A DNA stretch of 64,000 nt from positions 1 to 64,000 of the forward strand of contig JADMIG010000003.1 in assembly GCA_015478725.1 (NCBI GenBank), in the 5' to 3' direction. Below, one piece after another: positions 36,632 through 51,109 of the stretch (positions are counted from its first letter, which is position 1; each line of letters opens with the position of its first letter). The stretch comes from Chloroflexota bacterium. GTDB taxonomy: Bacteria; Chloroflexota; Limnocylindria; Limnocylindrales; CSP1-4. The notes below the pieces were generated by a model. It was not told the origin of the DNA. It saw nothing but the letters and a program-made list of their open reading frames with translations, and searched no databases. A program made the translations under genes and the position numbers.

Positions 36632-37897
36632 ATGCCAGCCCCCCTCGTCGTCCAGAAATTCGGCGGTTCGTCGCTCGCCGATGCGGACCGCATCCGCCGG
36701 GTCGCGCGGCGGATCGCCAGCGAGCGCGCGGCCGGCTCCGAGCTCGTCGTCGTGGTCTCGGCGATGGGCGACACGACGGACGAGCTCCTCGAGCTCGCTG
36801 CCGCCATCACGGACGAGCCGGACTCCCGGGAGCTCGACGTCCTCCTCGCGACGGGCGAGCACCAGAGCGCAACGCTCGTCTCCATGGCACTCCACGCCAT
36901 CGGCGTCCCGGCGATCAGCCTGACGGGCGCCCAGGCCGGGATCACGACGGACGGACGGTACGGCAAGGCCCGGATCGCCGGAGTCGAACCCACCCGGGTC
37001 CGACAGGAGATCGATGCCGGCAAGGTGGTCATCGTCGCCGGCTTCCAGGGACTGAGCCAGCCCGCCGGCGAGGCGGGTGAGACGACGACGCTCGGGCGCG
37101 GCGGCTCGGACACGACGGCCGTCGCCCTCGCCGCGCGGCTCGCCGCCGATCGCTGCCAGATCTTCACGGACGTCCGGGGCATCTACACGGCGGACCCGCG
37201 GATCGTCCCGCACGCCCGCCAGCTCGACCGCATCGGCTACGAGGAGATGCTCGAGCTCGCCCACCAGGGCGCCCAGGTCATGCAGACGAGAGCCGTCGAG
37301 CTCGGCTGGGTGAACGGCGTCATCATCGAGGTCCTCAGCTCCTTCGAGGACGCCCCGGGGACGCTCATCGCGGAGGATCCGCTCGTGGAACAACGGAACA
37401 AGGTCAGGGGACTCGCCCACGATCGGAACGTGGCCAAGGTCACCCTCGTCGCGGTCCCGGATCGGCCGGGCGTCGCCGCTGCCGTCTTCGGGCCGCTCGC
37501 GGACGCCGGCATCAATGTGGACATGATCGTCCAGAACGTTGGCCACGACGGAGCGACGGACCTCTCGTTCACCGTGCCCCGGATCGAGCTGGCCAGGACG
37601 CGCCGGCTCCTCGAACCCACCGTGGGGGAGCTCGGATTCCGGGAGCTGACGGTGGATCCGTCCGTCGCCAAGGTGTCCATCGTGGGAGCCGGGATCCAGA
37701 ACGCCCCGGGCTACGCGGCCCGGATGTTCGGGGCCCTCGCCGACGCCGGTGTGAACATCGAGATGATCTCGACATCGGAGATCCGGATCACGTGCATGAT
37801 CGCCGAGGAGGACGTGGAGACGGCGGTCCGCGCGCTCCACGCGGCATTCGAGCTCGAACAGCCGGACGCCATCGGCGCGGTCCCGGCGACCGCGTGA
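36632..37897 (+). CDS. lysC: Aspartate kinase
   Basis: First enzyme of the aspartate family pathway (421 aa). The kinase domain begins VVQKFGGSSLADADRI and includes VVVSAMGDTTDELL, ATGEHQSATL, TTLGRGGSDTTAVALA and FTDVRGIYTADPRIV. Two C-terminal ACT domains (about 265-421; KVTLVAVPDRPGVAAAVF, then KVSIVGAGIQNAPGYAARMF) indicate feedback control by lysine and/or threonine, as in monofunctional aspartokinases. ATG 36632 sits 7 nt from the -10 box. It is coupled to birA by a GTGA overlap. Confidence 0.96.
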   Translation: MPAPLVVQKFGGSSLADADRIRRVARRIASERAAGSELVVVVSAMGDTTDELLELAAAITDEPDSRELDVLLATGEHQSATLVSMALHAIGVPAISLTGAQAGITTDGRYGKARIAGVEPTRVRQEIDAGKVVIVAGFQGLSQPAGEAGETTTLGRGGSDTTAVALAARLAADRCQIFTDVRGIYTADPRIVPHARQLDRIGYEEMLELAHQGAQVMQTRAVELGWVNGVIIEVLSSFEDAPGTLIAEDPLVEQRNKVRGLAHDRNVAKVTLVAVPDRPGVAAAVFGPLADAGINVDMIVQNVGHDGATDLSFTVPRIELARTRRLLEPTVGELGFRELTVDPSVAKVSIVGAGIQNAPGYAARMFGALADAGVNIEMISTSEIRITCMIAEEDVETAVRALHAAFELEQPDAIGAVPATA

Positions 37898-38850
37898 TCG
37901 CCCACGCCGCCGACACCGTCGACGCCGTGAGCCCGGCCACGTCCCCCGAGGGGGCCTCGCCCACGGCGACGCCGACCGAGGGTACGCCGTCCGAGGCGCA
38001 GTTCTTCAGCCGGGCCGAGCGCTTCGCGGTCGTGGGCTCCACGAACGACGTCGTCCGCGACTGGCTCGCGACCGGGAGCCCCGAGGTCTGCCTCGCGATC
38101 GCGGACGAGCAGACCGCGGGCCGCGGTCGTTCCGGCCGAACGTGGCGGGCTCCCGACGGCGCGGCGCTGCTCCTCTCGCTCGGCTTCCGTCCCACGTGGC
38201 TCCCCCCGGAGCGGACCTGGCAGCTGGCGGCCGTCGTCGCGCTGGCCATGGCGGACGCGGCGGAGGAGGTGGCCGTCCTCCGCGATCGATCGATCCGCCT
38301 CAAGTGGCCGAACGACCTCGTCGTCGAGGACGGCGGGCCGGCCGATCCACGCGCGGGCGCGCTCCGCAAGCTCGCCGGCGTGCTCGGTGAGACAGGCGGT
38401 CTCGGGACCAGCGATCCCCGGGCGATCGTGGGCATCGGCGTGAACGCCGGCTGGCGGCCGGACGCCTTCCCGGCGGACCTCGCCCCGACGATGACGAGCC
38501 TCGCCGAGGTCTCCGGCGGCCGCCCGATCGACCTCGCCTTCCTCCTCGACGCGTTCACGGCGCGAGTCGAGCCCCGCGTCCTCGCCCTCCGGAGCGGGCG
38601 CTTCGACGCCGGCGACTGGGTGACCCGGCAGGTGACGACCGGACGGGACGTCCGGCTCGTCGGCGGCGCGGTGAATGGCACGGCCACCCGCGCGGTGGAT
38701 GGCACGGTGGATCGCGATGAGGTGGTCCGCGCCCTCGGCGTGGACCCCCGCTCCGGGGCGCTCGTCGTCGCGGATCCGGACGCCCCCCACGGCGAGCGGC
38801 ACGTGATGAGCGGCGAGATCGTCAACCTTCGTCTCGCCGGACCGGTGTAA
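37894..38850 (+). CDS. birA: Biotin-[acetyl-CoA carboxylase] ligase
   Basis: Attaches biotin to BCCP through biotinyl-AMP. The 318-aa protein has the signature GRGRSGRTWRAPDGAALLLS and the catalytic-lysine segment RLKWPNDLVVED, plus GVLGETGG and IVGIGVNAGW. There is no N-terminal DNA-binding domain, so it is a monofunctional ligase, not a BirA-type repressor. The first ~35 residues are a Pro/Thr/Ala tail. Its position before accD-accA-accC fits its role in making active acetyl-CoA carboxylase. Confidence 0.93.
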   Translation: MIAHAADTVDAVSPATSPEGASPTATPTEGTPSEAQFFSRAERFAVVGSTNDVVRDWLATGSPEVCLAIADEQTAGRGRSGRTWRAPDGAALLLSLGFRPTWLPPERTWQLAAVVALAMADAAEEVAVLRDRSIRLKWPNDLVVEDGGPADPRAGALRKLAGVLGETGGLGTSDPRAIVGIGVNAGWRPDAFPADLAPTMTSLAEVSGGRPIDLAFLLDAFTARVEPRVLALRSGRFDAGDWVTRQVTTGRDVRLVGGAVNGTATRAVDGTVDRDEVVRALGVDPRSGALVVADPDAPHGERHVMSGEIVNLRLAGPV

Positions 38851-38854
38851 CGGG

Positions 38855-39514
38855 ATGGCCCGCCTGGTGTTTGGAAGGGTGAGCGCCGCGGAGGAGGCGG
38901 GACGCTCGCGGGTGCGCCATCTCGATCGCGACCGCGCGCTCGTGGAGGCGGCCCGTCGCGACGCCTCCGCGTTCGAACCCCTCTATCGCAGGTACCTTGC
39001 CCAGGTGTATTCCTACGCGTACTACGAGCTCGGCGACCATCACGATGCCGAGGACGCCACCGAGCGGACGTTCCTCCTCGCATTCACCCATCTCGGGCGC
39101 TTCGAGGAGCGTGCCCGGCCGGCGGATGGTGAGGGCGCCTCGACGTTCCGGGTCTGGCTCTTCCGGGTCGCTCGCAACGTCGTCGCGAACCAGCGCCGCG
39201 CTCGCCGTCGACACCCCACGACGACACTCGATGCGGCGACCGCCGTCGCCGATCCGCTCGATCTCGAGGGACGGGTGACGGATCGTGCCGAGGCCGCGGC
39301 CGCGTGGCGCGCCGTGGGGCGGCTGCCGGCCGACCGCCGTCGGGCCCTCGTCCTGCGGTTCGTCGAGGAGATGTCCACGGCCGAGATCGCCGGCATCCTC
39401 GGCCGCTCGGAGGGCGCGGTCCGCGTGCTCATCCATCGCGCCCTGCGGAGCGTCGCCCGCGACCTCGGCGGGCGCGACCTCGGTCACCGCGACCTCGGCG
39501 GCCGGGGCCGGTGA
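38855..39514 (+). CDS. ECF-type RNA polymerase sigma factor
   Basis: 219-aa sigma factor with region 2 (FEPLYRRYLAQVYSYAYYEL, then DAEDATERTFLLAF) and region 4 helix-turn-helix (MSTAEIAGILGRSEGAVRVL). It starts 5 nt after birA, and its stop overlaps the next gene (GTGA), so it may be co-transcribed with birA and the acc genes. The C-terminus ends in a GGRDLGHRDLGG repeat coded by a small tandem repeat. The partner membrane protein at 39511 may be its regulator. Confidence 0.88.
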   Translation: MARLVFGRVSAAEEAGRSRVRHLDRDRALVEAARRDASAFEPLYRRYLAQVYSYAYYELGDHHDAEDATERTFLLAFTHLGRFEERARPADGEGASTFRVWLFRVARNVVANQRRARRRHPTTTLDAATAVADPLDLEGRVTDRAEAAAAWRAVGRLPADRRRALVLRFVEEMSTAEIAGILGRSEGAVRVLIHRALRSVARDLGGRDLGHRDLGGRGR

Positions 39515-39951
39515 GCCCGTTCCCACTGCCGCGACCGGCCGCCGAGGCGTTGCGGACGGAGCGCTACCTCGACGCGCTCCTCGCCGCCGGCGATCGGCAT
39601 GCGATCGACGTCCCGGCGCCGAGCGACCTCGACCCGGCCATCCGGATCGCGGCCCGACAGCTCGTCGCGGAGCTCGGCCGGGTCCACCCATCGTTCCGCT
39701 TCGAGGAGCGCCTCGCGACGCGGCTGGCGAGCGTCGGCGTCACTTCCGCACGCGTCGGTGTCACCTCCGCGGGCGCCGCGGCCGTCGTCCCGTGGCCCGA
39801 CCTCGAGGAGCGACCGGCGGTGGGCTCGGAGGCCGCCCGGCGTGTTCGTCCGCTCCTCATCGGCGGTGCCCTCACCTCCGCCGCGCTGTCGCTCGCCGGT
39901 GCCGCCTTCTTCGCCTGGCGGCACACCCGTCCCAGCCGGGGACTCGGCTGA
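39511..39951 (+). CDS. Single-pass membrane protein next to ECF sigma factor
   Basis: 146-aa protein with a soluble N-terminal part (ERYLDALLAAGDRHAIDV) and one hydrophobic segment near the C-terminus (LLIGGALTSAALSLAGAAFF). No zinc-binding HxxxCxxC is present, so it is not a standard ZAS anti-sigma factor. Translational coupling on both sides (GTGA with the sigma gene, TGATG with accD) suggests a sigma-linked regulator; function otherwise unknown. Confidence 0.7.
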   Translation: MSPFPLPRPAAEALRTERYLDALLAAGDRHAIDVPAPSDLDPAIRIAARQLVAELGRVHPSFRFEERLATRLASVGVTSARVGVTSAGAAAVVPWPDLEERPAVGSEAARRVRPLLIGGALTSAALSLAGAAFFAWRHTRPSRGLG

Positions 39952-40997
39952 TGCCGATCAAGCTGCCCTCGTTCCGCCAGCGCCGCGACAGCTACCCGCC
40001 GGACCTGTGGACGAAGTGTCCATCGTGCGAGGAGCTCCTCTTCAACAAGCAGCTCGACAAGCAGCACCGGGTCTGCCCGAACTGCGGCCACCATTTCCGG
40101 CTGTCGGCGAGCGCGCGGATCGGGCTTCTCCTCGACCCGGGCTCGTTCGAGGAACGCGACGAGGGGCTCCAGTCCGTCGACCCGCTCGGGTTCGTGGACC
40201 AGAAGGCGTACCCGGATCGGGTCGCCGCGGCACAGGTCGCGACCGGTATGCGCGACGCGGCCATCTGGGGCCTCGGGGCGATCGGGGGCCGGGCCGTCGC
40301 CATCTGCGTCATGGACTTCGCGTTCATGGGCGGGTCCATGGGGGCGGTCGTCGGCGAGAAGGTGACCCGCTCCGCGGAAGCCGCCCTCGAGGCGCGGATC
40401 CCCCTCATCGTCGTCTCGGCGTCCGGCGGCGCCCGGATGCAGGAAGGGACGCTCGCCCTCATGCAGCTCGTGAAGACGGTCGCGGCGCTCGAACGACTCC
40501 GCGCCGAGGGCGTGCCGTACGTCTCGATCCTCACGGACCCGACGACCGGAGGCGTCTTCGCCTCCTTCGCGGTCCTCGGTGACGTCAACCTCGCCGAGCC
40601 GAACGCGCTCATCGGGTTCGCCGGCGCCCGGGTCCAGGCGGGCACGATCGCCACGGAGCTGCCGCCGGGCTTCCAGCGGAGCGAGTTCCTCTTCGAGCAC
40701 GGGTTCCTCGACCGGGTCGTGCCGCGGATGGAGCTTCGGGCGGAGGTCTCGGCGCTCCTCCGGTATCTCGTCCCGGCGACGTTCGAGACGCCACCATCCG
40801 ACACGCTCGGCCTGCCGGGCTTCCGTCCGCTGTCGTTCCTCTCCGCGCTCGCGGAGCGGGTGATCCCGGACTCGGAACCGCCGAACGGAACGACGACCAC
40901 CGCGCCCGTCGTGACCGCCCCGGCCCCTGGAACGACGGCCACCGCGCCCGTCGTGACCGCCCCGCCGCCCGTGGAGCGCGAGGCCGGTCGTGGTTGA
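39951..40997 (+). CDS. accD: Acetyl-CoA carboxylase carboxyltransferase beta subunit
   Basis: With AccA transfers CO2 from carboxybiotin to acetyl-CoA. The 348-aa protein has the N-terminal zinc ribbon (C23-x2-C26, C42-x2-C45) and the crotonase-like core: FAFMGGSMGAVVGEKVTR, VSASGGARMQEG, LTDPTTGGVFASFA and IGFAGARVQAGTI. The C-terminal ~40 residues are a Thr/Ala/Pro repeat. ATG 39951 overlaps the upstream stop. It overlaps accA by 8 nt. Confidence 0.96.
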   Translation: MPIKLPSFRQRRDSYPPDLWTKCPSCEELLFNKQLDKQHRVCPNCGHHFRLSASARIGLLLDPGSFEERDEGLQSVDPLGFVDQKAYPDRVAAAQVATGMRDAAIWGLGAIGGRAVAICVMDFAFMGGSMGAVVGEKVTRSAEAALEARIPLIVVSASGGARMQEGTLALMQLVKTVAALERLRAEGVPYVSILTDPTTGGVFASFAVLGDVNLAEPNALIGFAGARVQAGTIATELPPGFQRSEFLFEHGFLDRVVPRMELRAEVSALLRYLVPATFETPPSDTLGLPGFRPLSFLSALAERVIPDSEPPNGTTTTAPVVTAPAPGTTATAPVVTAPPPVEREAGRG

Positions 40998-41976
40998 CCG
41001 GATCCGGACGCGCCTCGGCCTCGAAGAAGCCGGATCGGCGGCGAGCGCGCCCGTCGCGCTCGGGCCGACCGAGGAACGCGAGGCGGTCTGGGCCCGCGTC
41101 CAGCACGCACGGAACGTGCGGCGCCCGCATGCGCTCGAGCTCATCGCCGGGATCACGGACGACTTCATCGAGCTTCACGGGGACCGCCACTTCGGCGACG
41201 ACGCCGCGCTCGTCGGCGGGTTCGCCCGGATCGGGGAGCGGCGGATCGTCGTCCTCGGCCAGCAGAAGGGCGCCGAGACCGAGGAGAACATCCGCCGCAA
41301 CTTCGGGATGCCCCACCCGGAGGGCTACCGTAAGGCGATGCGGCTCATGGAGCTCGCAGAACGCTTCGGCATGCCGGTCGTCAGCCTCGTCGACGTGCCG
41401 GGCGCCCACCCGGGACCCGAATCGGAGGAGCGCGGCATCGCCGAGGCGATCGCCCGCTCGATCGGCCTCATGGCCCGCCTGCGAACGCCGATCGTCGCGG
41501 TCATCACCGGGGAGGGTGGTTCGGGTGGGGCGCTCGCCATCGCCGTCGGCGACGTCGTCATCGCCCTCGAGAACGCCGTCTACAGCGTGATCAGCCCGGA
41601 GGGCTGCGCGTCCATCCTGTGGCGGACGCCGGATCGCGCCGCCGATGCCGCCGTGGCGATGAAGATGACGGCGGCGGACCAGCTCGCCCTCGACGTCGTG
41701 GACGTCGTGGTGCCCGAACCGCCGGGCGGCGCCCAGAACGATCACGCGGAGACGGCGCGACGGCTTCGGGCCACCATCGTCGAGCACCTCGATGCGCTCG
41801 CGGCGATCCCGCTCGACGAGCTCGTCGACGCCCGCTACCGGCGCTACCGCACCTTCGGCGCCTACACGGTCGTGGAGCGCGTGGCACCGCGCCCGGCGGA
41901 ACGGCCCGGGTTCACCGAGCGACTGCGCGGGTTCTTCGGCCTGCCGGGCGACACGTCCGGGCGCGAGGACTCGTAA
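40990..41976 (+). CDS. accA: Acetyl-CoA carboxylase carboxyltransferase alpha subunit
   Basis: Partner of AccD (328 aa). Visible are RPHALELIAGITDDFIELHG, GQQKGAETEENIRRNFGMP, the SLVDVPGAHPGPESEERG loop (conserved as DTPGAYPG in most species) and ITGEGGSGGALAIAVGD with ISPEGCASILW. The N-terminus is shorter than in E. coli. GTG 40990 lies inside the end of accD. The next gene begins immediately after its stop. Confidence 0.95.
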   Translation: MVDRIRTRLGLEEAGSAASAPVALGPTEEREAVWARVQHARNVRRPHALELIAGITDDFIELHGDRHFGDDAALVGGFARIGERRIVVLGQQKGAETEENIRRNFGMPHPEGYRKAMRLMELAERFGMPVVSLVDVPGAHPGPESEERGIAEAIARSIGLMARLRTPIVAVITGEGGSGGALAIAVGDVVIALENAVYSVISPEGCASILWRTPDRAADAAVAMKMTAADQLALDVVDVVVPEPPGGAQNDHAETARRLRATIVEHLDALAAIPLDELVDARYRRYRTFGAYTVVERVAPRPAERPGFTERLRGFFGLPGDTSGREDS

Positions 41977-42609
41977 GTGGCGCCCGCCGACGACCACCGC
42001 AACGAGACGAGCCGAGCCCGGGATCACGCGGCGATCGATCGACTCGCGGACGAGCTGCTCCCCGCGCTCGTCGCCAAGCTCGCAGCAAGCCGCCTCGGCG
42101 AGATCGAGGTCCGCGAGGGCCCATGGAAGGTCCGCCTCCGGGCTCCGGCCGGGACCGGGCACCTATCCGGGTCCGGGACGGCCTCCGGCTCCGGGACGCC
42201 GTCCGGCGCACGCGACCGTCGCACCCTCGACCGCGCATCCCGGCTCTCGTCCGGCCACGGGGCGACCGGCTCGTCCACTCCGACTGCCGGACCGCCGCCC
42301 GGTGCCCGCGACGGGTTCGCGCCACTGACCCCGGTCGGACCTGGCCACCCGCGCCCGGCCGGTGAAGCGTCCGACGTGTCGCGCCGGGCCGTCGCGACCT
42401 CGCCCGCCGTCGGCGTCTTCCAGCCGCGTCCGGACGTGCGGCCCGGGATGCGGGTCCGGGCCGGCGACCGCCTCGGCGACGTCGATGTCCTCGGCGTCCT
42501 CCAGGAGGTCGTGAGCCCCGTCGACGGGATGGTCGGCGGGACCCTCGTCGATGCCGGCGACGCGGTCGAGTACGGCCAGGAGCTCATCCACGTCGAGGTG
42601 GGCGCGTGA
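41977..42609 (+). CDS. BCCP-like protein lacking the biotin-accepting lysine
   Basis: 210-aa protein in the usual accB position between accA and accC. It has BCCP architecture: an N-terminal helical segment, a ~90-residue Gly/Ser/Thr/Pro linker, and a C-terminal biotinyl-like barrel from about 142 (SPAVGVFQP through YGQELIHVEV). The conserved EAMKM turn is replaced by DVLGVLQEV (170-178): the modified Lys aligns with Gly173. The rest of the hammerhead fold is recognisable, so this looks like specific loss, not decay. A canonical BCCP lies at 46626. Plant BADC proteins are similar lysine-less BCCP homologues that inhibit plastid acetyl-CoA carboxylase; a like role here is inference. Confidence 0.82.
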   Translation: MAPADDHRNETSRARDHAAIDRLADELLPALVAKLAASRLGEIEVREGPWKVRLRAPAGTGHLSGSGTASGSGTPSGARDRRTLDRASRLSSGHGATGSSTPTAGPPPGARDGFAPLTPVGPGHPRPAGEASDVSRRAVATSPAVGVFQPRPDVRPGMRVRAGDRLGDVDVLGVLQEVVSPVDGMVGGTLVDAGDAVEYGQELIHVEVGA

Positions 42610-43982
42610 TGTTCAGCAAGATCCTCATCGCAAACCGCGGCGAGATCGCCCTCCGCATCCTCCGCGCCTGCCGCGCGCTCGGCGTGGGATCCGTCGTCGT
42701 CTACAGCGAGGCCGATCGCGAGAGCCTCCCGGTCCAGCTCGCCGACGAGGCGATCTGCATCGGGCCGGCGGATGCGAAGCGGAGCTACCTGTCCGCGCCC
42801 TCCATCATCAGCGCCGCCCTCATCACCGGCTGCGACGCGATCCATCCGGGCTACGGCTTCCTGTCCGAGGACGAGGGTTTCGCCGAGGTCGTCCGGGCCC
42901 ACGAGCTCACCTTCATCGGGCCGCCGCCGAGCGTCCTCGAGCGGTTCGCCTCCAAGGAGGCGACGCGCCGCCTCCTCGGTGCCCACGGCCTGCCGACGAT
43001 CCCGGGATCGAACGGCATGCTGCGCGACGACGCCCACGCCCTCGACGAGGCGGATCGGATCGGGTTCCCGGTCCTCATCAAGCCATCCGCCGGCGGGGGC
43101 GGCAAGGGGATGCGGATGGTCCGCACCCCCCGCGAGCTCGAGACGGCGCTCCGGGTCTGCCGCTCGGAGGCGCGGGCCGCCTTCGGCGACGATTCGCTCT
43201 ACCTCGAGAAATGGCTCGAGGACAATCGGCACGTCGAGATCCAGATCGCGGTGGATCGGCATGGCAGCGGAGTCCACCTCGGCGAGCGCGACTGCTCCGT
43301 CCAGCGCCGCCACCAGAAGATCATCGAGGAGTCGCCGACGCCGGCCCTCTCCGCGATCGCGCGCGAGGAGCTTGCGGAGCGGGCCGTCCGGGCCGCGATC
43401 GCCGCCGGCTACGAGAACGTCGGCACGCTCGAGTTCCTCGTCGACGGTCGGGGCGACGCCTGGTTCATCGAGATCAACTGCCGGATCCAGGTCGAACACC
43501 CGGTGACGGAGATGCTCACCGGCATCGACCTCGTGACGACCCAGATCCGGATCGCCGCCGGCGAGCCGCTCGAGTTCGCCCAGTCGGACGTCGTGCTCCG
43601 CGGCCACGCCATCGAGTTCCGCATCAATGCCGAGGACCCGGCGGCGGACTTCCGGCCGGAAGCCGGACGCATCGAGCGGTATCTCGTGCCCGGCGGACCG
43701 GGCGTCCGGATGGACTCCCACCTTTTCGTCGGCTACGACGTTCCGCCGTACTACGACTCGCTCCTCGGCAAGCTCATCGTCTGGGGTCCGGACCGGCCGA
43801 CGGCGATCGCCCGCTCGCGGGTCGCCCTCGACGAGCTCGTCATCGAAGGTCTCGCGACCAACATCCCCATCCACCAGGCGCTCCTGGCGAACGAGATCTT
43901 CCTCGAGGGCCGGATGACGACGAACCTCCTCGACCGGGTCGGCGCGGCGGCGTTCCTCGCCGCCGGCAGCCGGTCCTCGTGA
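42606..43982 (+). CDS. accC: Biotin carboxylase
   Basis: ATP-grasp enzyme carboxylating biotin on BCCP (458 aa). It begins FSKILIANRGEIALRILRAC and shows IHPGYGFLSED, the Gly-rich ATP loop PSAGGGGKGMRMV, ERDCSVQRRHQKIIEESP, and FIEINCRIQVEHPVTEM, where most species have NTRIQVEH or NPRIQVEH; Cys at that position is unusual but outside the Arg-Glu-His triad. GTG 42606 overlaps the BCCP-like stop; ATG 42609 is the alternative start and gives the standard MFSKILIANRG. A 109-nt gap follows. Confidence 0.95.
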   Translation: MMFSKILIANRGEIALRILRACRALGVGSVVVYSEADRESLPVQLADEAICIGPADAKRSYLSAPSIISAALITGCDAIHPGYGFLSEDEGFAEVVRAHELTFIGPPPSVLERFASKEATRRLLGAHGLPTIPGSNGMLRDDAHALDEADRIGFPVLIKPSAGGGGKGMRMVRTPRELETALRVCRSEARAAFGDDSLYLEKWLEDNRHVEIQIAVDRHGSGVHLGERDCSVQRRHQKIIEESPTPALSAIAREELAERAVRAAIAAGYENVGTLEFLVDGRGDAWFIEINCRIQVEHPVTEMLTGIDLVTTQIRIAAGEPLEFAQSDVVLRGHAIEFRINAEDPAADFRPEAGRIERYLVPGGPGVRMDSHLFVGYDVPPYYDSLLGKLIVWGPDRPTAIARSRVALDELVIEGLATNIPIHQALLANEIFLEGRMTTNLLDRVGAAAFLAAGSRSS

Positions 43983-44091: not shown

Positions 44092-44598
44092 GTGACCGAG
44101 ACCCCCACCGCCATCCCCGCCGCCATCCCGCCCGCGACATCGGGCGCCGGGCCCGTGCACACGACCCGCGAGATCGAGGCCCTCATCCCGCATCGCTGGC
44201 CGTTCCTCCTCGTCGACCGGATCGTCGAATACGACGCGGCGGCGCGGCGGATCGTCGGCCTCAAGGCGGTGACCGCGACCGAGTGGTACTTCCAGGGCCA
44301 CTTCCCCGGGCTGCCGGTCATGCCGGGGGTCCTCCAGGTGGAGGCGCTCGCCCAGACGATGGCGGTCTACGTCGGCAAGCAGCCGGGCTTCGGCGATCGG
44401 ATCGGCCTCTTCGCCGGCATCGAGGAGTGCCGCTTCAAGCGGGTCGTCGCTCCGGGCGACACGCTCCGGCTCGAGGTGACGATGGAGAAGCTCGGCCGGC
44501 GCTTCGGGCGGGGGAGGGCGGTCGCCACGGTGGACGGCGAGGTCGCCTGCGAGGCGGTCCTGAGCTTCATCATCCCGGACGCCTCGGTGCTCCGATGA
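44092..44598 (+). CDS. fabZ: 3-hydroxyacyl-ACP dehydratase
   Basis: Hot-dog fold dehydratase of fatty-acid elongation (168 aa). Catalytic His is in [20 protein letters not shown] with the Glu six residues after [16 protein letters not shown] is the N-terminal family signature and [13 protein letters not shown] the later strand. The first 20 residues are an Ala/Pro tail. GTG 44092 follows GAGAAGAGG by ~8 nt. It opens the fab operon and overlaps the phosphoesterase by 4 nt. Confidence 0.95.
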
Positions 44599-45341
44599 CC
44601 GCCCGGATCGCCGTCTTCTCGGACGTCCACGGCAACGCCGTCGCCCTCGCCGCGGTCCGCAAGGCGGTGAAGGCGGCGAAGCCGGACGCCATCGCGGTCG
44701 CCGGGGATCACGTGCTCAACGGTCCGGACCCGGCGGCCGTCGTGGACGGCCTCCGCGAGATGGAGGCGGACGGGGCGCTCATCATCCAGGGCAACACAGA
44801 CATCGCCGTCGCCGACTTCGATTATGGGGCGGCCTTCCCGTGGTACACGGACGACGTGCCGGAGACGATCGTGCGGGCCGCGGAATGGGCCCACGAGGCG
44901 CTCGGCGAGGAGCGCCTGGACTGGCTCCGCCGGTTGCCCGCCGAGCGGCGCATCCGCCTCGACGAGACGCTCGTCCTCGTCACCCACGCCTCGCCGGGCT
45001 CCCAGACGGCCGGCTTCGACCGCGACCTGGACCCGTCCGTCACGATCGAGCGCCTGGCCCGGACGGACGCCCGGATCGTCTGCTGCGGCCACACCCACGT
45101 GCCGGAGATCCGCGACTTCGGCTGGCGCCAGCTCGTCAATGGCGGCTCGGCCGGCTACGTCTTCGACGGGGACCCCACGGCGTCGTGGGCGCTCCTCGAG
45201 GTTCACGGCGACGAGATTCAGGCGGAGATCCGGCGGACCGAGTTCGACGCGCTCGCCGTGAGCAACGCCCTCACCGCCCGCGGCCTCCCTGGCGACATCT
45301 ATCGGGCAGCCACGGTCCGGACGGGGAAGCTCGTCCGGTGA
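44595..45341 (+). CDS. Metallophosphoesterase (YfcE/calcineurin-like)
   Basis: 248-aa phosphoesterase with the dimetal motifs FSDVHGN (Asp10, His12), [26 protein letters not shown] and CCGHTHVPE in order. Family members are phosphodiesterases or protein/nucleotide phosphatases; the substrate is not predictable. Its placement between fabZ and fabF, with coupled translation, is unusual and hints at a role tied to lipid synthesis, for example on phosphopantetheine or nucleotides, but this is speculation. Confidence 0.9.
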
Positions 45342-45360: not shown

Positions 45361-46629
45361 GTGAGCGTGAGCGTCGCACCGGTGCGACGGGTGGTCGTCA
45401 CCGGCATGGGGGCGGTGAGCGCCCTCGGCAATGACGTCGCCTCCACGTGGGCAGGTATGGTGGCCGGCCGCAGCGGCATCCGGACCATCGAGGCATTCGA
45501 TCCGGCGCGACTCACGTCGCGGATCGCCGGTGAGGTCCGCGATCTCGACGCGAGCCATGTCCTCGACCGCAAGGAGCTCCGCCGGACGGACCGCTACATC
45601 GCCCTCGGCCTGGTCGCGACGCGCGAGGCGATGGATGCGGCGGGCCTGCCGGCGCGTCTCGAGGGCGCACTCGCCGAGGAGACCGGCGTCATCCTCGGCA
45701 CCGGGCTCGGCGGCATCGGGACGGTCATCGACAACGTGACCACGAGCGTGGAGCGCGGCCCGGATCGGATCAGCCCGTTCTTCATCCCGATGGGCATCCC
45801 GAACGTGGGAGCTGGCCAGGTCGCCATCTCGACCGGCGCCAGTGGCCCGAACTTCGCGATCGCGTCGGCCTGCGCGACGGGCGGTCACGCGATCGGCGAG
45901 GCGTGGGAGACGATCCGTCGCGGGGACGCCGCGGTCATGCTCGCCGGCGGAACGGAGGCGGGGATCCACGAGGAGCTCGTCGGTGGCTTCTGCGCCATGC
46001 GTGCGCTCTCGACGCGGAACGACGATCCCGCCGCGGCGTCGCGTCCGTTCGATGCCGGCCGTGACGGCTTCGTCATCGGCGAGGGCGCCGGCATGCTCGT
46101 CCTGGAGTCGCTCGAGCATGCCGATGCGCGCGGCGCCGAACCGCTCGCCGAGCTCGTCGGCTACGGGGCCACCGCGGACGCCTCCCACCTCACGCTCCCC
46201 GCGCCCGGCGGGATCGGAGCGGTCCGGGCCGCCCGGCGGGCACTCGCGAAGGCCGGCCTCGCGGCGAACGAGATCCAGCACCTCAACGCCCACGCGACGT
46301 CCACGGTGGAGGGGGACAGGGCCGAGATCGAGGCGATCCGCACGATCTTCGGCGAGCACGCGGCGCGGGTCGCCGTGACGGCCAACAAGAGCATGATCGG
46401 CCACACCCTCGGGGCGGCCGGGGCGATCGAGGCGATCGCAACGATCATGGCGATCCGGACCTCCCGCGTCCCACCCACGATCAACCTCGTCGACCCGGAT
46501 CCGGCGGCGGCCGGCCTCGACCTCACCCCGAACGTGGGCCGATCGGTCGCGATCGAGGCGGCGTTGAGCAACTCGTTCGGCTTCGGGGGCCAGAACAGCG
46601 CCCTCGTCTTCCGGCGGTGGGCCCGATGA
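45361..46629 (+). CDS. fabF: 3-oxoacyl-ACP synthase II
   Basis: KAS II condensing enzyme (422 aa). RRVVVTGMGAVSALGNDV at the N-terminus; catalytic Cys in ASACATGGHAIGEA near 170, His in NAHATSTVEGD and His in NKSMIGHTLGAAGAIEA; FGFGGQNSALVF at the end. GTG 45361 is about 20 nt after the phosphoesterase stop; the second GTG at 45367 is an alternative. It is coupled to the canonical BCCP gene by ATGA. Confidence 0.96.
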   Translation: MSVSVAPVRRVVVTGMGAVSALGNDVASTWAGMVAGRSGIRTIEAFDPARLTSRIAGEVRDLDASHVLDRKELRRTDRYIALGLVATREAMDAAGLPARLEGALAEETGVILGTGLGGIGTVIDNVTTSVERGPDRISPFFIPMGIPNVGAGQVAISTGASGPNFAIASACATGGHAIGEAWETIRRGDAAVMLAGGTEAGIHEELVGGFCAMRALSTRNDDPAAASRPFDAGRDGFVIGEGAGMLVLESLEHADARGAEPLAELVGYGATADASHLTLPAPGGIGAVRAARRALAKAGLAANEIQHLNAHATSTVEGDRAEIEAIRTIFGEHAARVAVTANKSMIGHTLGAAGAIEAIATIMAIRTSRVPPTINLVDPDPAAAGLDLTPNVGRSVAIEAALSNSFGFGGQNSALVFRRWAR

Positions 46630-47234
46630 CGGACGAGCGATCGCACGACGACCCGACGAGCGACCCGACGAGCGACCCGACGGGGGAGGCGGCGGGGGAG
46701 CCGACGCCCGGCGACGCCTCGTCCGCGCCCGAGATCTCCCCGCTCGCGCCCGGCGACGCGTCGCTCCTCGCCCTCATCGACCGGCTCGCCGGCCTCCTCG
46801 AGCGGAGCGACCTGGACGAGCTGGAGGTCCAGGCGGGCGGGACGGGCCTCGTCCTCCGCAAGCCTTCGGCGCTCGCCGTCGCCGCGGTCGTCGCGCCCGG
46901 TGGGCACGAGACCCCGACTGCCGCTGGTTCGACGCCCGCGACCACGGCCGGATCCGCGAGTCGCGACGGTCTCGCGGCCACTGCCGGATCCGGGCCACCG
47001 TCCGTCAAGGCGCCGCTCACCGGCATCTTCTACAACGCCCCGGCGCCCGGCTCCGCGCCGTTCGTGAACGTCGGCAGCGAGGTCGCCGTGGGCACCGTCA
47101 TCGGCCTCATCGAGGCGATGAAGCTCTTCAACGAGATCAAGAGCGATCTCGCCGGTCGAGTCGTCCGGGTGGTCGCGGAGAATGGCGCGCTCGTCAAGGC
47201 GAAGCACCCGCTCATCGAGGTCGAGCCGCTGTGA
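46626..47234 (+). CDS. accB: Biotin carboxyl carrier protein of acetyl-CoA carboxylase
   Basis: Canonical BCCP (202 aa): helical segment near 45-80, Gly/Thr/Pro linker, biotinyl domain from ~127 (VKAPLTGIFYNAPAPGSAPF) with the biotin site IGLIEAMKLFNEIKSD, Lys166. The thumb-like insertion is present. The N-terminus includes a short DPTSDPTSDPT repeat coded by a 12-bp tandem repeat. It is displaced from the acc operon, lying between fabF and fabH, while a lysine-less homologue occupies the usual place. It is the evident substrate of the BirA ligase at 37894. Confidence 0.95.
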   Translation: MTDERSHDDPTSDPTSDPTGEAAGEPTPGDASSAPEISPLAPGDASLLALIDRLAGLLERSDLDELEVQAGGTGLVLRKPSALAVAAVVAPGGHETPTAAGSTPATTAGSASRDGLAATAGSGPPSVKAPLTGIFYNAPAPGSAPFVNVGSEVAVGTVIGLIEAMKLFNEIKSDLAGRVVRVVAENGALVKAKHPLIEVEPL

Positions 47235-48445
47235 CCATCAAGGCCCACGTCACCGGCTGGGGCCGTTATGCCCCGTCGCAGGTCCTCACGAATGCCGACC
47301 TCGAGCGGATGGTCGAGACATCGGACGAGTGGATCCGCTCGCGGACGGGCATCCGCGAGCGGCGGGTCGCGGCGGCCAACGAGACCACCGCCTCGATGGG
47401 GGCCGTGGCGGGTCGCCGGGCGATCGAGGTCGCCGGCCTCGCGCCGAATGACATCGACCTCATCCTCCTCGCCACCCTCACCCCGGACTACTGGATGCCG
47501 TCCACCGCCGCGCTCGTCAAGGAGGCGATCGGCAACACGCGGGCTGCGGCCATGGACGTCTCGGCGGCGTGCAGCGGCTTCGTCTACGCGTACGCGAGCG
47601 CCCACGCCCACATCCTGAGCGGGATGGCGAAGCACGTCCTCGTCATCGGCTCGGAGACGCTCACCCGGTTCCTCGATTACACGGACCGCAACACGTGCAT
47701 CCTCTTCGGCGACGGGGCCGGGGCGATCGTCCTCTCGGCGTCGGAGGAGCCGGGCGGCGGGCTCGGCATCGAGCTGACGACGGAGCCCTCCGGGGCGTAC
47801 ATGATCTGGCTGCCGGCGGGCGGGGCGAAGGCACCGCCGTCGACGGGAACGGTCGCCCGGCGCGAGCACTACATGCGGATGGAGGGCAAGGAGACGTACC
47901 GCTTCGCCACCCGGACGCTCGCCTCCACGGCCCTCGCCGCGATCGAGCGGGCCGGGCTCAAGCCGGAGGAGATCGACCTCATCATCCCGCACCAGGCGAA
48001 CATCCGGATCATCGAGGCGGTGGCCAGGGGTCTCGGCCTGCCGATGGAGCGGATGTTCGTCAACGTGGAGCGCTACGGGAACACGTCCGCGGCGTCCATC
48101 CCGATCGCCCTCGCCGAGGCCGTCGACGCCGGGCGGGTGAAGATCGGCGACCGGATCGTCATCGTCGCCTTCGGGGCCGGCTTCACGAGCGGCGCGGTGG
48201 CGATCGAATGGACCGCCGATCCGGCGCGGGGCGTCGGCGTCGATGAGCGGATCCGGCCGGAGGACATCGCCGTCCGGCTGCCGGTCGACTGGGACGCGGT
48301 GGACCCGATCCCGGCGGCGCTCGCCTCGATCATGGCGACGCCGGTCGCCGGCCGCCAGATCGACCTCTCGGACGTCGTGCCGGGCGAACCCCCGGTGGTC
48401 GAGGCGGCCGATCCCGCGGCCGCGGAGACGGCCCGGACCGGCTGA
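47231..48445 (+). CDS. fabH: 3-oxoacyl-ACP synthase III
   Basis: KAS III initiating fatty-acid synthesis from acyl-CoA and malonyl-ACP. Catalytic Cys near 113 (VSAACSGFVYAYAS), His near 251 (IIPHQANIRIIEAV), Asn near 281 (YGNTSAASIPIAL). TSDEWIRSRTGIRERR is the N-terminal family signature. At 404 aa it exceeds the usual ~325: the last ~75 residues (RIRPEDIAVRLPVDWD onward) form an extra tail with no recognised domain. GTG 47231 overlaps accB as GTGA. Confidence 0.95.
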   Translation: MTIKAHVTGWGRYAPSQVLTNADLERMVETSDEWIRSRTGIRERRVAAANETTASMGAVAGRRAIEVAGLAPNDIDLILLATLTPDYWMPSTAALVKEAIGNTRAAAMDVSAACSGFVYAYASAHAHILSGMAKHVLVIGSETLTRFLDYTDRNTCILFGDGAGAIVLSASEEPGGGLGIELTTEPSGAYMIWLPAGGAKAPPSTGTVARREHYMRMEGKETYRFATRTLASTALAAIERAGLKPEEIDLIIPHQANIRIIEAVARGLGLPMERMFVNVERYGNTSAASIPIALAEAVDAGRVKIGDRIVIVAFGAGFTSGAVAIEWTADPARGVGVDERIRPEDIAVRLPVDWDAVDPIPAALASIMATPVAGRQIDLSDVVPGEPPVVEAADPAAAETARTG

Positions 48446-48542
48446 TCGCAGCGCGCGGCGGTCGTCCGCGCCTTACGCAGCGCTTACGGACGCCGTCCGG
48501 TCGGCCGTTGTCGCCCGGTCGGCAGGTCCGCATGCTCCGGCC

Positions 48543-49763
48543 GTGGTGACCGATCGCGCACTCATCGCGCATCTCCTCCGGCGGGTCTCGTTCGGTCCGC
48601 TCCCGGGCCAGGTGGACGCGCTCGCGCCAGGCGGCATCGCGGCGGCGATCGAGACAGTCCTCTCCGCCTCGCCGCTGCCGATCGGCCCGGCCCCGGACCT
48701 GTCCCCGCTCCCGAACCGCGCACCGATCGGATGGTGGCTCGCCCGGATGGGCGACCCGAACGCCGGCCTGACCGAGAAGCTCACCTGGTTCTGGCACGGC
48801 CACCTGACCTCCAGCCAGGCCAAGGTCCGCGACTGGGGCGCGATGTGGCGACAGCACCAGCTCCTCGCGACCGACGCGCTCGGCGACTTTCGGACCATGG
48901 TCCAGAGCGTCACCACGGACCCGGCGATGCTGCGCTACCTGGACGGGAGCGGCTCCGAGGCGGCGGCCCCGAACGAGAACTACGGACGCGAGCTCATGGA
49001 GCTCTTCACGCTCGGCCGCGGCAACTACACCCAGACTGACGTTCACGCGGCGGCCATGGCTCTCTCCGGCTGGCGGCTGGACCCGCGGGCACCCGGCGGG
49101 TCGCGGTTCGTGGCGTCCCGCGGTCTGTCCGCGCCGGTCACCCTCCTCGGTCGCGCGGTGCAGACCGCCGCGGACGTGGTCAACACCGTCTGCGATCAGC
49201 CGGCCTGCCCGCCGTTCATCGCCGGCGAGCTCTTCGCCTACCTCATGGGCACGGATCCCACGCCGCCGCAGCGCCAGCAGTACGGCGACCTGTTCCAGGC
49301 CGTCGGTCTCCAGATCCGGCCGCTCGTGGAGGGGATCCTCAAGGATCCGGCCTTCCTCCTCGCCCGCCAGACGCGACCGCGGTATCCGGTCGAATGGCTG
49401 ACCGCCGCCATGGGCGCCCTCGGGCTCCAGCAGCCGTCGCTCGCCGCCCAGCTGTGCGTCCGCATGGGTCAGGTCCCGTTCTTTCCGCCGAACGTCGCCG
49501 GCTGGCCCGTGGGTCTGCGCTGGCTCGCGCCGAGCTTCGCGCTCGTGCGGGCCGCGCTCGGTGCGCGCGCCAGCGGCATCGCGGAGGTGGCCGGCGCGGC
49601 GGATCCTGTCGCGGCGACCCTCCACCGGTGCTCCATCGAGGAGGTCACGCCGGCCACGCAGCAGGCCCTCGAGACGAGCGCGACCGCCCTGTCCGACCCG
49701 CACGAGCGGGCGGCCATCCTGCTCGGCCTGGCCGTGGGCTCGCCCGAATTCGCGCTCGCCTGA
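48543..49763 (+). CDS. DUF1800 family protein
   Basis: 406-aa protein of the DUF1800 family, usually encoded beside DUF1501 proteins, as here. LIAHLLRRVSFGPLPGQV at the N-terminus, EKLTWFWHGHLTSSQAKV and ENYGRELMELFTLGRGNYT are the family blocks. No signal peptide is clear. GTG 48543 (or the adjacent 48546) is chosen because the first family block starts within six residues; the open frame upstream is a shadow of fabH. The function of this pair is unknown; export of surface or storage material has been suggested for relatives. Confidence 0.88.
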   Translation: MVTDRALIAHLLRRVSFGPLPGQVDALAPGGIAAAIETVLSASPLPIGPAPDLSPLPNRAPIGWWLARMGDPNAGLTEKLTWFWHGHLTSSQAKVRDWGAMWRQHQLLATDALGDFRTMVQSVTTDPAMLRYLDGSGSEAAAPNENYGRELMELFTLGRGNYTQTDVHAAAMALSGWRLDPRAPGGSRFVASRGLSAPVTLLGRAVQTAADVVNTVCDQPACPPFIAGELFAYLMGTDPTPPQRQQYGDLFQAVGLQIRPLVEGILKDPAFLLARQTRPRYPVEWLTAAMGALGLQQPSLAAQLCVRMGQVPFFPPNVAGWPVGLRWLAPSFALVRAALGARASGIAEVAGAADPVAATLHRCSIEEVTPATQQALETSATALSDPHERAAILLGLAVGSPEFALA

Positions 49764-49789
49764 CGGATCGGACACGACGGAGGCAACCG

Positions 49790-51109
49790 ATGCGCACCCC
49801 GAGAATGAAGCTCCTGAGTCGTCGCCAGTTCCTCGGCTACGGCCTCCTCGCGGGCGCCGCGACGGTGGGTGCGGGCGGGCTCGTGGAGGCGCTCGGACGG
49901 AACGGCGCCGCGGTCGCCGGTGGACCGGCTCCGTCCGGGCTGGCTCCGTCCCAAGCGGCCCTCCATCCGAGCTTCGGCACGGCTCCGGCCATCCGGGCCG
50001 CGGACGTCTCGGTCCGCCGTCTCGTCGTCATCGACATGGCCGGCGGCAACGACGGGGTCTCGATGGTCCCGCCCATCGGCAACCCGCTCTACGCGAAGCT
50101 GCGCCCGCGGACCTCCCTGGATCCGGCAACGGTCCTGCCGCTGACGGCGCAGGTGGCGCTCCATCCGTCGCTCACCAGGCTCCACGGCCGGGGCCTCGCC
50201 ATCGTCCAGGGGGTGGGGGTTCCCACGCCGGACCTGTCCCATTTCGAGATGCTCCGGCGCTGGTACGCCGGCGACATGGACAGCACGACGGACACCCTGA
50301 CCGGCTTCCTCGGGCGCCTCTGCGACGCCATCGGCGACGCCTCGGCCACGGCGGTCGGCGTCTCCCTCGGCTACGGTCCCACGCCGGCCCTCGTCTCTGC
50401 GAAGGTCTCGACAGTGTCCATGGACCCGTACGGCACGGGCGGCTTCCCGGCGCCGCACCAGCTCGCCGCTGCGGACGTCTGGACGACCGCCTGGAAGTCG
50501 ATGGCCGAGTACGGCCCGTCCGATCCGGTGCCCTTCTGTTCGGCCCGCAAGGGCGCCGCCTATGCGGTCCGGTTCAGCGACGTGGCGAAGGGCTTCCCGG
50601 CGGCCGATCCCGGTTTCCCGACGACCGAGCTCGGCGCGCAGCTCTCGCTGGCGGCCCGGATCCTCGCCCAGGACAACGGCGTCCGGGTGCTCCACGTGCC
50701 GTTCCTCGGCGATTTCGACACGCACCAGGATCACCTCGCCCGGCACGCGGCGCTCATGACCCAGCTGGACGACGGGCTGGACGCGTTCCTCTCGGATCTC
50801 CAGCGGCGCGGCATCGCGGACCGGGTGCTCGTCGCGACAACCTCCGAGTTCGGACGACGGATGCCGGACAACGCGTCGGACGGTCTCGATCACGGCGCGG
50901 CCTCGTTCGCCCTCTTCAGCGGCCCGGTGACGCCCGGGCTCTACGGCGCGTATCCCCGGCTCGACGCGCTCGATCGGAACAACGACCTGGTGGCCCAGGT
51001 CACGATGGCCCAGTACTACGCGACGATCGCCGAAGGCTGGTTCGGCGTTCCGGCATCGGAGGTGGTCGCGGGCTCGGCCACGCCGCTCACGGGGATCGTG
51101 GCGAGCTGA
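49790..51109 (+). CDS. DUF1501 family protein with Tat signal
   Basis: 439-aa exported protein. The N-terminus carries a twin-arginine motif (LLSRRQFLGYGLLAG) and hydrophobic run, then the DUF1501 (alkaline-phosphatase-like) domain: VVIDMAGGNDGVSMVPP, HFEMLRRWYAGD, FLGDFDTHQDHLARH, TTSEFGRRMPDNASDGLDHG. Relatives are folded before export and partner with DUF1800 proteins. ATG 49790 has GGAGG about 8 nt upstream. 26 nt separate it from DUF1800, so the two are one transcription unit. Confidence 0.9.
   Translation: MRTPRMKLLSRRQFLGYGLLAGAATVGAGGLVEALGRNGAAVAGGPAPSGLAPSQAALHPSFGTAPAIRAADVSVRRLVVIDMAGGNDGVSMVPPIGNPLYAKLRPRTSLDPATVLPLTAQVALHPSLTRLHGRGLAIVQGVGVPTPDLSHFEMLRRWYAGDMDSTTDTLTGFLGRLCDAIGDASATAVGVSLGYGPTPALVSAKVSTVSMDPYGTGGFPAPHQLAAADVWTTAWKSMAEYGPSDPVPFCSARKGAAYAVRFSDVAKGFPAADPGFPTTELGAQLSLAARILAQDNGVRVLHVPFLGDFDTHQDHLARHAALMTQLDDGLDAFLSDLQRRGIADRVLVATTSEFGRRMPDNASDGLDHGAASFALFSGPVTPGLYGAYPRLDALDRNNDLVAQVTMAQYYATIAEGWFGVPASEVVAGSATPLTGIVAS

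What the first reader, a model, noticed from the sequence alone, without database searches (positions are those of the whole stretch)
41977..42609. BCCP homologue without biotin lysine inside the acetyl-CoA carboxylase operon
The gene in the accB slot keeps the BCCP layout (helical start, flexible linker, biotinyl-like barrel), but EAMKM is replaced by DVLGV and the acceptor Lys aligns with Gly173. A second, canonical BCCP with IEAMKLFNEI sits at 46626. In plants, BADC proteins are lysine-less BCCP homologues that inhibit plastid carboxylase by taking BCCP places. A bacterial equivalent, co-translated with accA and accC, would be a built-in brake on fatty-acid synthesis. The plant fact is established; the role here is inference.
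Basis: partly seen in the sequence, partly recalled or inferred. Interest (0 to 1): 0.78.

Follow-up and report, generated by a model that had tools for sequence, protein, structure and literature searches.

The report
Conserved biotin-less BCCP subunit in bacteria
A gene inside the operon for the first enzyme of fat synthesis makes a copy of the enzyme's biotin-carrying arm that cannot carry biotin, and this dead arm is conserved throughout the bacterium's class, with counterparts in other bacterial groups, so it probably helps build or tune the enzyme, as a similar protein does in plants.

Summary
ORF 41977-42609 is a full-length BCCP homologue (N-terminal helix and hairpin, linker, barrel) in which the biotin-acceptor Lys is Gly173. 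It lies between accA and accC; a canonical BCCP lies 4 kb downstream. Orthologues occur in 24 of 25 genera searched in its order and in other families of its class. The acceptor column is Gly in 28 of 28 aligned rows of the order, and the protein is under purifying selection (omega mostly 0.04-0.2).

Across Chloroflexota, and in Armatimonadota, a 'type-1' BCCP (slot pepP-efp-accB) has lost its Lys (now G, N, R, Q, T or D). In Chloroflexota the loss goes with a second, Lys-bearing 'type-2' BCCP: 84 of 84 scored Lys-less genomes have one elsewhere; in 25 of 25 scored Lys-keeping genomes one gene is best hit to both profiles. Many Lys-less barrels have also shortened the BCCP 'thumb'.

It cannot carry biotin. 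Best reading: a non-catalytic acetyl-CoA carboxylase subunit, analogous to (not shown to be related to) plant BADC, more likely an assembly or stoichiometry subunit than a simple brake. Binding to AccC or type-2 BCCP is inferred. I found no bacterial case in the papers held here.

The parts
41977..42609 (+). Lysine-less type-1 BCCP homologue (210 aa), between accA and accC
41995..42090 (+). N-terminal helix (residues 7-38), part of the BCCP N-terminal domain
   Evidence: AF2 model; full-length profile match to E. coli AccB 4hr7_B (E 9e-20)
42100..42141 (+). N-terminal beta hairpin (residues 42-55), motif LGEIEVREGPWKVRLR, matches ELEISEGEESVRISR of E. coli AccB
42142..42384 (+). Low-complexity flexible linker (residues 56-136)
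   Evidence: mostly low pLDDT
42385..42597 (+). Biotinyl-like barrel (residues 137-207) with shortened thumb
   Evidence: pLDDT about 97-98; Foldseek best hits are BCCP biotinyl domains; thumb length
42484..42498 (+). DVLGV (residues 170-174) at the place of EAMKM; acceptor Lys replaced by Gly173 (42493-42495)
46617..47234 (+). Canonical type-2 BCCP (accB2; start GTG 46617 or ATG 46626), acceptor Lys in IEAMKLFNEI
39951..40997 (+). accD, carboxyltransferase beta subunit
   Evidence: ORF, start placed; identified by sequence and operon position
40990..41976 (+). accA, carboxyltransferase alpha subunit
   Evidence: PF03255 1.3e-113
42606..43982 (+). accC, biotin carboxylase; start overlaps the stop of the Lys-less gene (GTGA)
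   Evidence: TIGR00514 2.6e-189; junction
44092..44598 (+). fabZ
45361..46629 (+). fabF
47231..48445 (+). fabH
37792..38850 (+). birA, biotin-protein ligase, upstream of the acc/fab cluster
   Evidence: TIGR00121 2.1e-29, over its cut-off

Best explanation
[quoted passage not shown] SHOWN: homology to AccB over its whole length, the BCCP fold, absence of the acceptor Lys in every orthologue read in the class, presence of a separate Lys-bearing BCCP, coupling to accA and accC, and long-term purifying selection. INFERRED: once a second BCCP (type-2, fabF-linked) was available, the ancestral efp-linked type-1 BCCP gave up carboxyl carriage. It kept its N-terminal domain and barrel surface, through which it joins AccC and/or the type-2 BCCP. 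By filling BCCP positions it sets the assembly and stoichiometry of the AccC-BCCP subcomplex, the 'glue' or 'cap' role proposed for plant BADC. Direct inhibition by occupying BCCP sites is a possible consequence but is not required.
For: Gly at the acceptor in 28/28 rows of the order and in families f3, f4 and f5 of the class. Full-length profile match to E. coli AccB, E 9e-20. AF2 and Foldseek give the BCCP barrel. Between accA and accC wherever contigs of the order allow, and after accA in other families of the class. In a large f21 genome the order is accD-accA-accC-[Lys-less]-[canonical BCCP]. In Chloroflexota, 84/84 scored Lys-less genomes have a second BCCP gene elsewhere and in 25/25 scored Lys-keeping genomes the same gene is best hit to both profiles. 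omega is 0.04-0.19 in 21 of 23 computable close pairs. The thumb is shortened in 58 of 106 Lys-less Chloroflexota barrels and in none of the 29 Lys-bearing ones. Of the 106, 44 have no Lys in the barrel at all, so these cannot be biotinylated or lipoylated there. BADC-as-glue in plants: PMC11926652.
Against: No interaction, expression or biochemical data. In many Chloroflexota the Lys-less gene sits by efp and xseA, away from accC, so operon linkage to ACC is not universal. No complex could be modelled here. Why such a subunit goes with a type-2 BCCP is not explained.
Confidence: 0.55

Rival explanations
1. Inhibitory brake: the Lys-less protein competes with biotinylated BCCP for AccC (or for the CT) and lowers malonyl-CoA output, as first proposed for plant BADC and by the first reader.
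For: It keeps both the N-terminal domain and the barrel of BCCP, so competition is structurally plausible; early plant in vivo data are cited as inhibition in PMC11926652.
Against: Fixed co-translation with accA and accC leaves little room for regulation at the level of expression. Retention throughout the order suggests a constitutive need. PMC11926652 argues against displacement for plant BADC. No evidence of regulation was found here.
Confidence: 0.2
2. Regulatory docking subunit: a BCCP-shaped receptor for a signal protein (such as PII/GlnB, which is reported to bind BCCP) or for membrane or metabolite cues, not primarily structural.
For: PII-BCCP interaction is reported in Synechocystis (PMC5080355, title and abstract); a non-biotinylated BCCP could be such a receptor.
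Against: No conserved ligand site was identified; untested.
Confidence: 0.12
3. Function outside ACC: the protein was recruited to a different complex and stays in the acc operon, or by efp, only through inherited gene order.
For: Outside Limnocylindria the gene is usually next to efp and xseA rather than accC, the probable ancestral accB slot.
Against: At least two lineages place it directly in acc operons: accDA-X-accC in Limnocylindria and accDAC-X-accB2 in f21. In one armatimonadote it is directly upstream of accC. Conservation of the BCCP N-terminal domain also argues against it.
Confidence: 0.1
4. Decaying pseudo-paralogue, or an annotation or sequencing artefact.
For: Only the missing Lys itself.
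Against: Open and conserved in 24 of 25 genera searched; omega mostly 0.04-0.2; the replacement motif D-x-L-G is itself conserved.
Confidence: 0.02

Closest known systems
BADC proteins (BADC1-3) of plant plastid heteromeric ACC
   Same: Lys-less homologues of BCCP that coexist with biotinylated BCCP; 25-30% identity to BCCP; proposed non-catalytic subunits binding BC and BCCP (PMC11926652).
   Different: Bacterial; encoded inside acc operons or in the efp-linked accB slot; replacement motif and thumb shortening of their own. The cyanobacterial genomes sampled have one BCCP each where found, with EAMK in 29 of the 30 loci read, so no shared plastid-line origin is indicated. Independent origin is likely but untested, because no plant sequences were held.
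BCCP / AccB (TIGR00531; E. coli AccB, PDB 4hr7, 1bdo)
   Same: Full-length homology, N-terminal domain, linker, barrel fold, operon position.
   Different: No biotin-acceptor Lys, thumb shortened, TIGR00531 score 34 against a cut-off of 115.
Type-2 BCCP of the same genomes (fabF-accB2-fabH)
   Same: Same fold; the carrier of biotin in these genomes by inference.
   Different: Keeps EAMK and thumb, lacks the VEYGQ tail typical of type-1.
Non-catalytic 'glue' subunits of bacterial acyl-CoA carboxylases
   Same: Accessory non-catalytic subunit that helps the holoenzyme assemble (mentioned in PMC11926652).
   Different: From general knowledge (epsilon subunits of actinobacteria) these are unrelated small proteins, not BCCP paralogues; not compared here.

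Membership tests
BCCP (AccB) of acetyl-CoA carboxylase | Biotin-acceptor Lys in the EAMKM hairpin | tested here: not met
   Gly173; Gly in 28/28 rows of the order
BCCP (AccB) of acetyl-CoA carboxylase | Barrel-sandwich biotinyl fold | tested here: met
   AF2 pLDDT about 97-98; Foldseek to 1bdo and 4hr7
BCCP (AccB) of acetyl-CoA carboxylase | N-terminal helix and hairpin domain | tested here: met
   Profile match to residues 29-176 of 4hr7_B; AF2
BCCP (AccB) of acetyl-CoA carboxylase | Thumb insertion | tested here: not met
   Shortened (25-32 residues, mostly 27, between strand-1 Gly and acceptor column) in 58 of 106 Lys-less Chloroflexota rows, against 33 in all 29 Lys-bearing type-1 rows; gap in the window protein seen in the alignment
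BCCP (AccB) of acetyl-CoA carboxylase | Score over the TIGR00531 equivalog cut-off | tested here: not met
   34.3 against 115.2 bits; the canonical BCCP of the window also falls slightly short (106.5)
Plant BADC | BCCP homologue lacking the biotinylation motif and coexisting with a biotinylatable BCCP | tested here: met
Plant BADC | Nuclear-encoded plastid protein of the green lineage | tested here: not met
   Bacterial chromosomal gene in an acc operon
Plant BADC | Phylogenetic kinship with plant BADC | not tested
   No plant sequences held; cyanobacteria sampled show one BCCP each where found
Plant BADC | Physical binding to BC and BCCP; effect on ACC activity | not testable with these tools
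   Only single chains could be modelled
Lipoyl/biotinyl domain with another cofactor | Modifiable Lys in the hairpin | tested here: not met
   No Lys in the barrel of the window protein; none in 44 of 106 Lys-less barrels

The most novel reading that the evidence does not exclude
In Chloroflexota and Armatimonadota, heteromeric acetyl-CoA carboxylase is built with two BCCP-type subunits, a biotin carrier (type-2) and a dedicated non-carrier (Lys-less type-1). The non-carrier arose by loss of the acceptor Lys, perhaps several times, after a second BCCP became available: a bacterial and independently evolved counterpart of plant BADC that makes the glue-versus-brake question testable in a bacterial system.
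Probability: 0.6. Interest if true: 0.82.

Novelty: new variant of a known kind. Interest (0 to 1): 0.74.

Why it matters
Non-catalytic BCCP-like subunits are described as unique to plant ACC (PMC11926652). A conserved bacterial counterpart, present in whole groups of Chloroflexota and in Armatimonadota, would change the accepted subunit list of bacterial ACC (AccA, AccB, AccC, AccD). It would mean that genes annotated accB in these bacteria are often not biotin carriers, and it would give a recombinant, operon-encoded system for testing whether a Lys-less BCCP assembles or inhibits the enzyme. The tie between Lys loss and a second BCCP is a clear candidate for subfunctionalisation of a catalytic subunit into a structural one.

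Tried and rejected
Sequencing error or recent mutation: rejected by orthologues and omega. Alternative modification (lipoyl, or biotin elsewhere in the barrel): rejected for the window protein. Restricted to the own family: rejected. A bacterial Lys-less BCCP in the literature: full-text searches gave plant BADC papers and ordinary bacterial BCCPs only; the Chloroflexus ACC paper (PMC11077971) deals with Lys-bearing BCCPs. Two searches for E. coli ACC cryo-EM papers gave nothing useful. The E. coli ACC review PMC8483704 is not held. A one-loss origin of all Lys-less proteins is not rejected (p-AU 0.32) and not shown; the best tree needs 5 changes. Candidate Lys-less hits in Aquificota were dismissed: they read EALKV, so a Lys is present. 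A cyanobacterial Lys-less BCCP (possible root of plant BADC) was sought and not found in 59 genomes.

Full report
THE OBSERVATION. The ORF at 41977-42609 (+) encodes 210 aa and sits directly between accA (40990-41976) and accC (42606-43982), abutting the first and overlapping the second in a GTGA junction. The cluster reads birA (37792-38850) ... accD (39951-40997) - accA - X - accC - fabZ - phosphoesterase - fabF - accB2 (46617-47234) - fabH. X matches Biotin_lipoyl just above its cut-off and TIGR00531 BCCP far below it (34.3 against 115.2 bits). A profile of its orthologues matches E. coli AccB (4hr7_B) over residues 29-176 with E 9e-20. AlphaFold2 gives an N-terminal helix (7-38), a hairpin (42-55), a disordered linker and a barrel at pLDDT about 97-98. 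Foldseek finds BCCP biotinyl domains, including 1bdo and 4hr7. The acceptor Lys is Gly173, inside DVLGV.

CONSERVATION. Forty relatives were searched. Matches were found in 24 of 25 genera of the order; the one genus without (G011) is represented by a 66%-complete genome. Where contigs reach, the gene lies between accA and accC. In an alignment of 28, the acceptor column is Gly 28/28, the residue before it Leu 28/28, and the -3 residue Asp 27/28. A contig of equal length (65,624 bases) with the same gene identifies one member of the family as Chloroflexi bacterium CSP1-4 (L074 and G007:C13). Other families of the class also have Gly there: f3 (VEMLGVRHDV) and f4/f5 (QSLGH), again after accD-accA. 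Close pairs show omega 0.04-0.19 in 21 of 23 computable cases (two at 0.32 and 0.37, one further pair saturated), so the protein is maintained.

WIDER DISTRIBUTION. A search of 301 Chloroflexota genomes showed that the type-1 BCCP lacks the Lys in many other families, with Gly, Asn, Arg or Gln instead. Where the neighbours were scanned they are elongation factor P, a metallopeptidase M24 and the exonuclease VII large subunit. From my own knowledge (not from a tool), efp-accB-accC is the ordinary accB place in many bacteria. A second profile for the fabF-linked type-2 BCCP let me ask which genomes have two genes. Of the genomes whose type-1 sequence was read and whose coordinates were listed for both searches, all 84 Lys-less ones have their type-2 gene elsewhere, and in all 25 Lys-keeping ones the same gene is best hit to both profiles (coordinates transcribed). 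Ten genomes could not be scored; in G022 and G023 a contig ends at the operon. G125 and G173 hold several Lys-bearing copies, and the f46 genome G162, one of the 25, likewise holds extra Lys-bearing copies. The Fisher p treats related genomes as independent and should not be taken literally.

ARMATIMONADOTA AND CYANOBACTERIA. In the phylum of an armatimonadote (G328), 81 of 81 genomes matched, most with two BCCPs. Of 30 first copies read, 19 lack the Lys (9 G, 7 R, 2 T, 1 D) and 11 keep it; of 22 second copies, 21 keep it. Two of the 11 first copies with Lys (L299, L313) group with type-2, and the single second copy without Lys (L351) groups with type-1. In 59 cyanobacteria the search found one full BCCP per genome where it found any, and EAMK was read in 29 of 30 loci.

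HISTORY. On trees built without the motif columns, Lys-less Chloroflexota and armatimonad type-1 proteins, Lys-bearing ones included, fall on one side of a branch with support 93 (not starred). Type-2 proteins of both phyla fall together (95, starred). The best tree needs 5 changes between Lys and no Lys; a single loss is not rejected (p-AU 0.32). Alignments have about 138 columns, so these results are weak.

A SECOND LOST FEATURE. The stretch from the strand-1 Gly to the acceptor column is 33 residues in all 29 Lys-bearing Chloroflexota type-1 rows, all type-2 rows and all outgroup rows, but shortened (25-32, mostly 27) in 58 of 106 Lys-less ones. This is the region of the BCCP thumb, whose mutation disrupts E. 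coli BCCP (Cronan 2001, as cited in PMC11926652). The Asn and Arg types mostly keep the length but not the usual sequence. Of the 106 Lys-less Chloroflexota barrels, 44 contain no Lys at all.

MECHANISM. Without Lys the protein cannot carry biotin, so it cannot do what AccB does. It keeps the N-terminal domain and the barrel, is made in step with AccA and AccC, and in the f21 genome G306 is encoded between accC and the canonical accB2 (accD-accA-accC-X-accB2). The simplest reading is a non-catalytic subunit of the carboxylase that occupies BCCP-type positions. The plant analogue BADC was first read as an inhibitor and later as a glue or cap for the BC-BCCP subcomplex. Fixed co-translation and near-universal retention fit the second role better, but neither was tested. 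Steps shown: homology, predicted fold, absence of Lys, coexistence with a Lys-bearing BCCP, operon coupling, selection. Steps inferred: binding, assembly role, and absence of biotin in vivo.

NOVELTY. BADC is described as unique to the plant enzyme, and no bacterial counterpart was found in the papers held here. The library is partial, so prior description cannot be excluded. It is filed as a new variant of a known kind: it works, by inference, like BADC, but membership in BADC is not claimed.

Noticed in passing
37792-38850: birA stands at the head of the acc/fab cluster; the family matches cover only the catalytic part of the ligase.
   Followed up: partly
38855-39514: An ECF-like sigma factor ORF lies between birA and accD and could tie the cluster's expression to a signal; identified by reading the sequence only.
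   Followed up: no
44595-45341: A metallophosphoesterase-like ORF ([14 protein letters not shown]) is inserted between fabZ and fabF, overlapping the fabZ stop.
   Followed up: no
48243-51109: Two ORFs that look like a DUF1800/DUF1501 pair follow fabH; read by eye, not scanned.
   Followed up: no
L193:5296-6383; L192:5630-6265: In an 8.9 Mb Chloroflexota genome (G306) there are two Lys-less BCCP genes: one in accD-accA-accC-X-accB2, one about 1 Mb away.
   Followed up: partly
L081:4355-4777; L111:5911-6333; L285-L314: Most Armatimonadota genomes searched have two BCCPs, with Lys kept in some type-1 copies and replaced by G, R, T or D in others: a phylum in which the loss could be followed.
   Followed up: partly
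G162 and G125 (loci L315, L326, L333, L317, L327, L332): Some Chloroflexota carry three Lys-bearing BCCP copies, the opposite situation.
   Followed up: no
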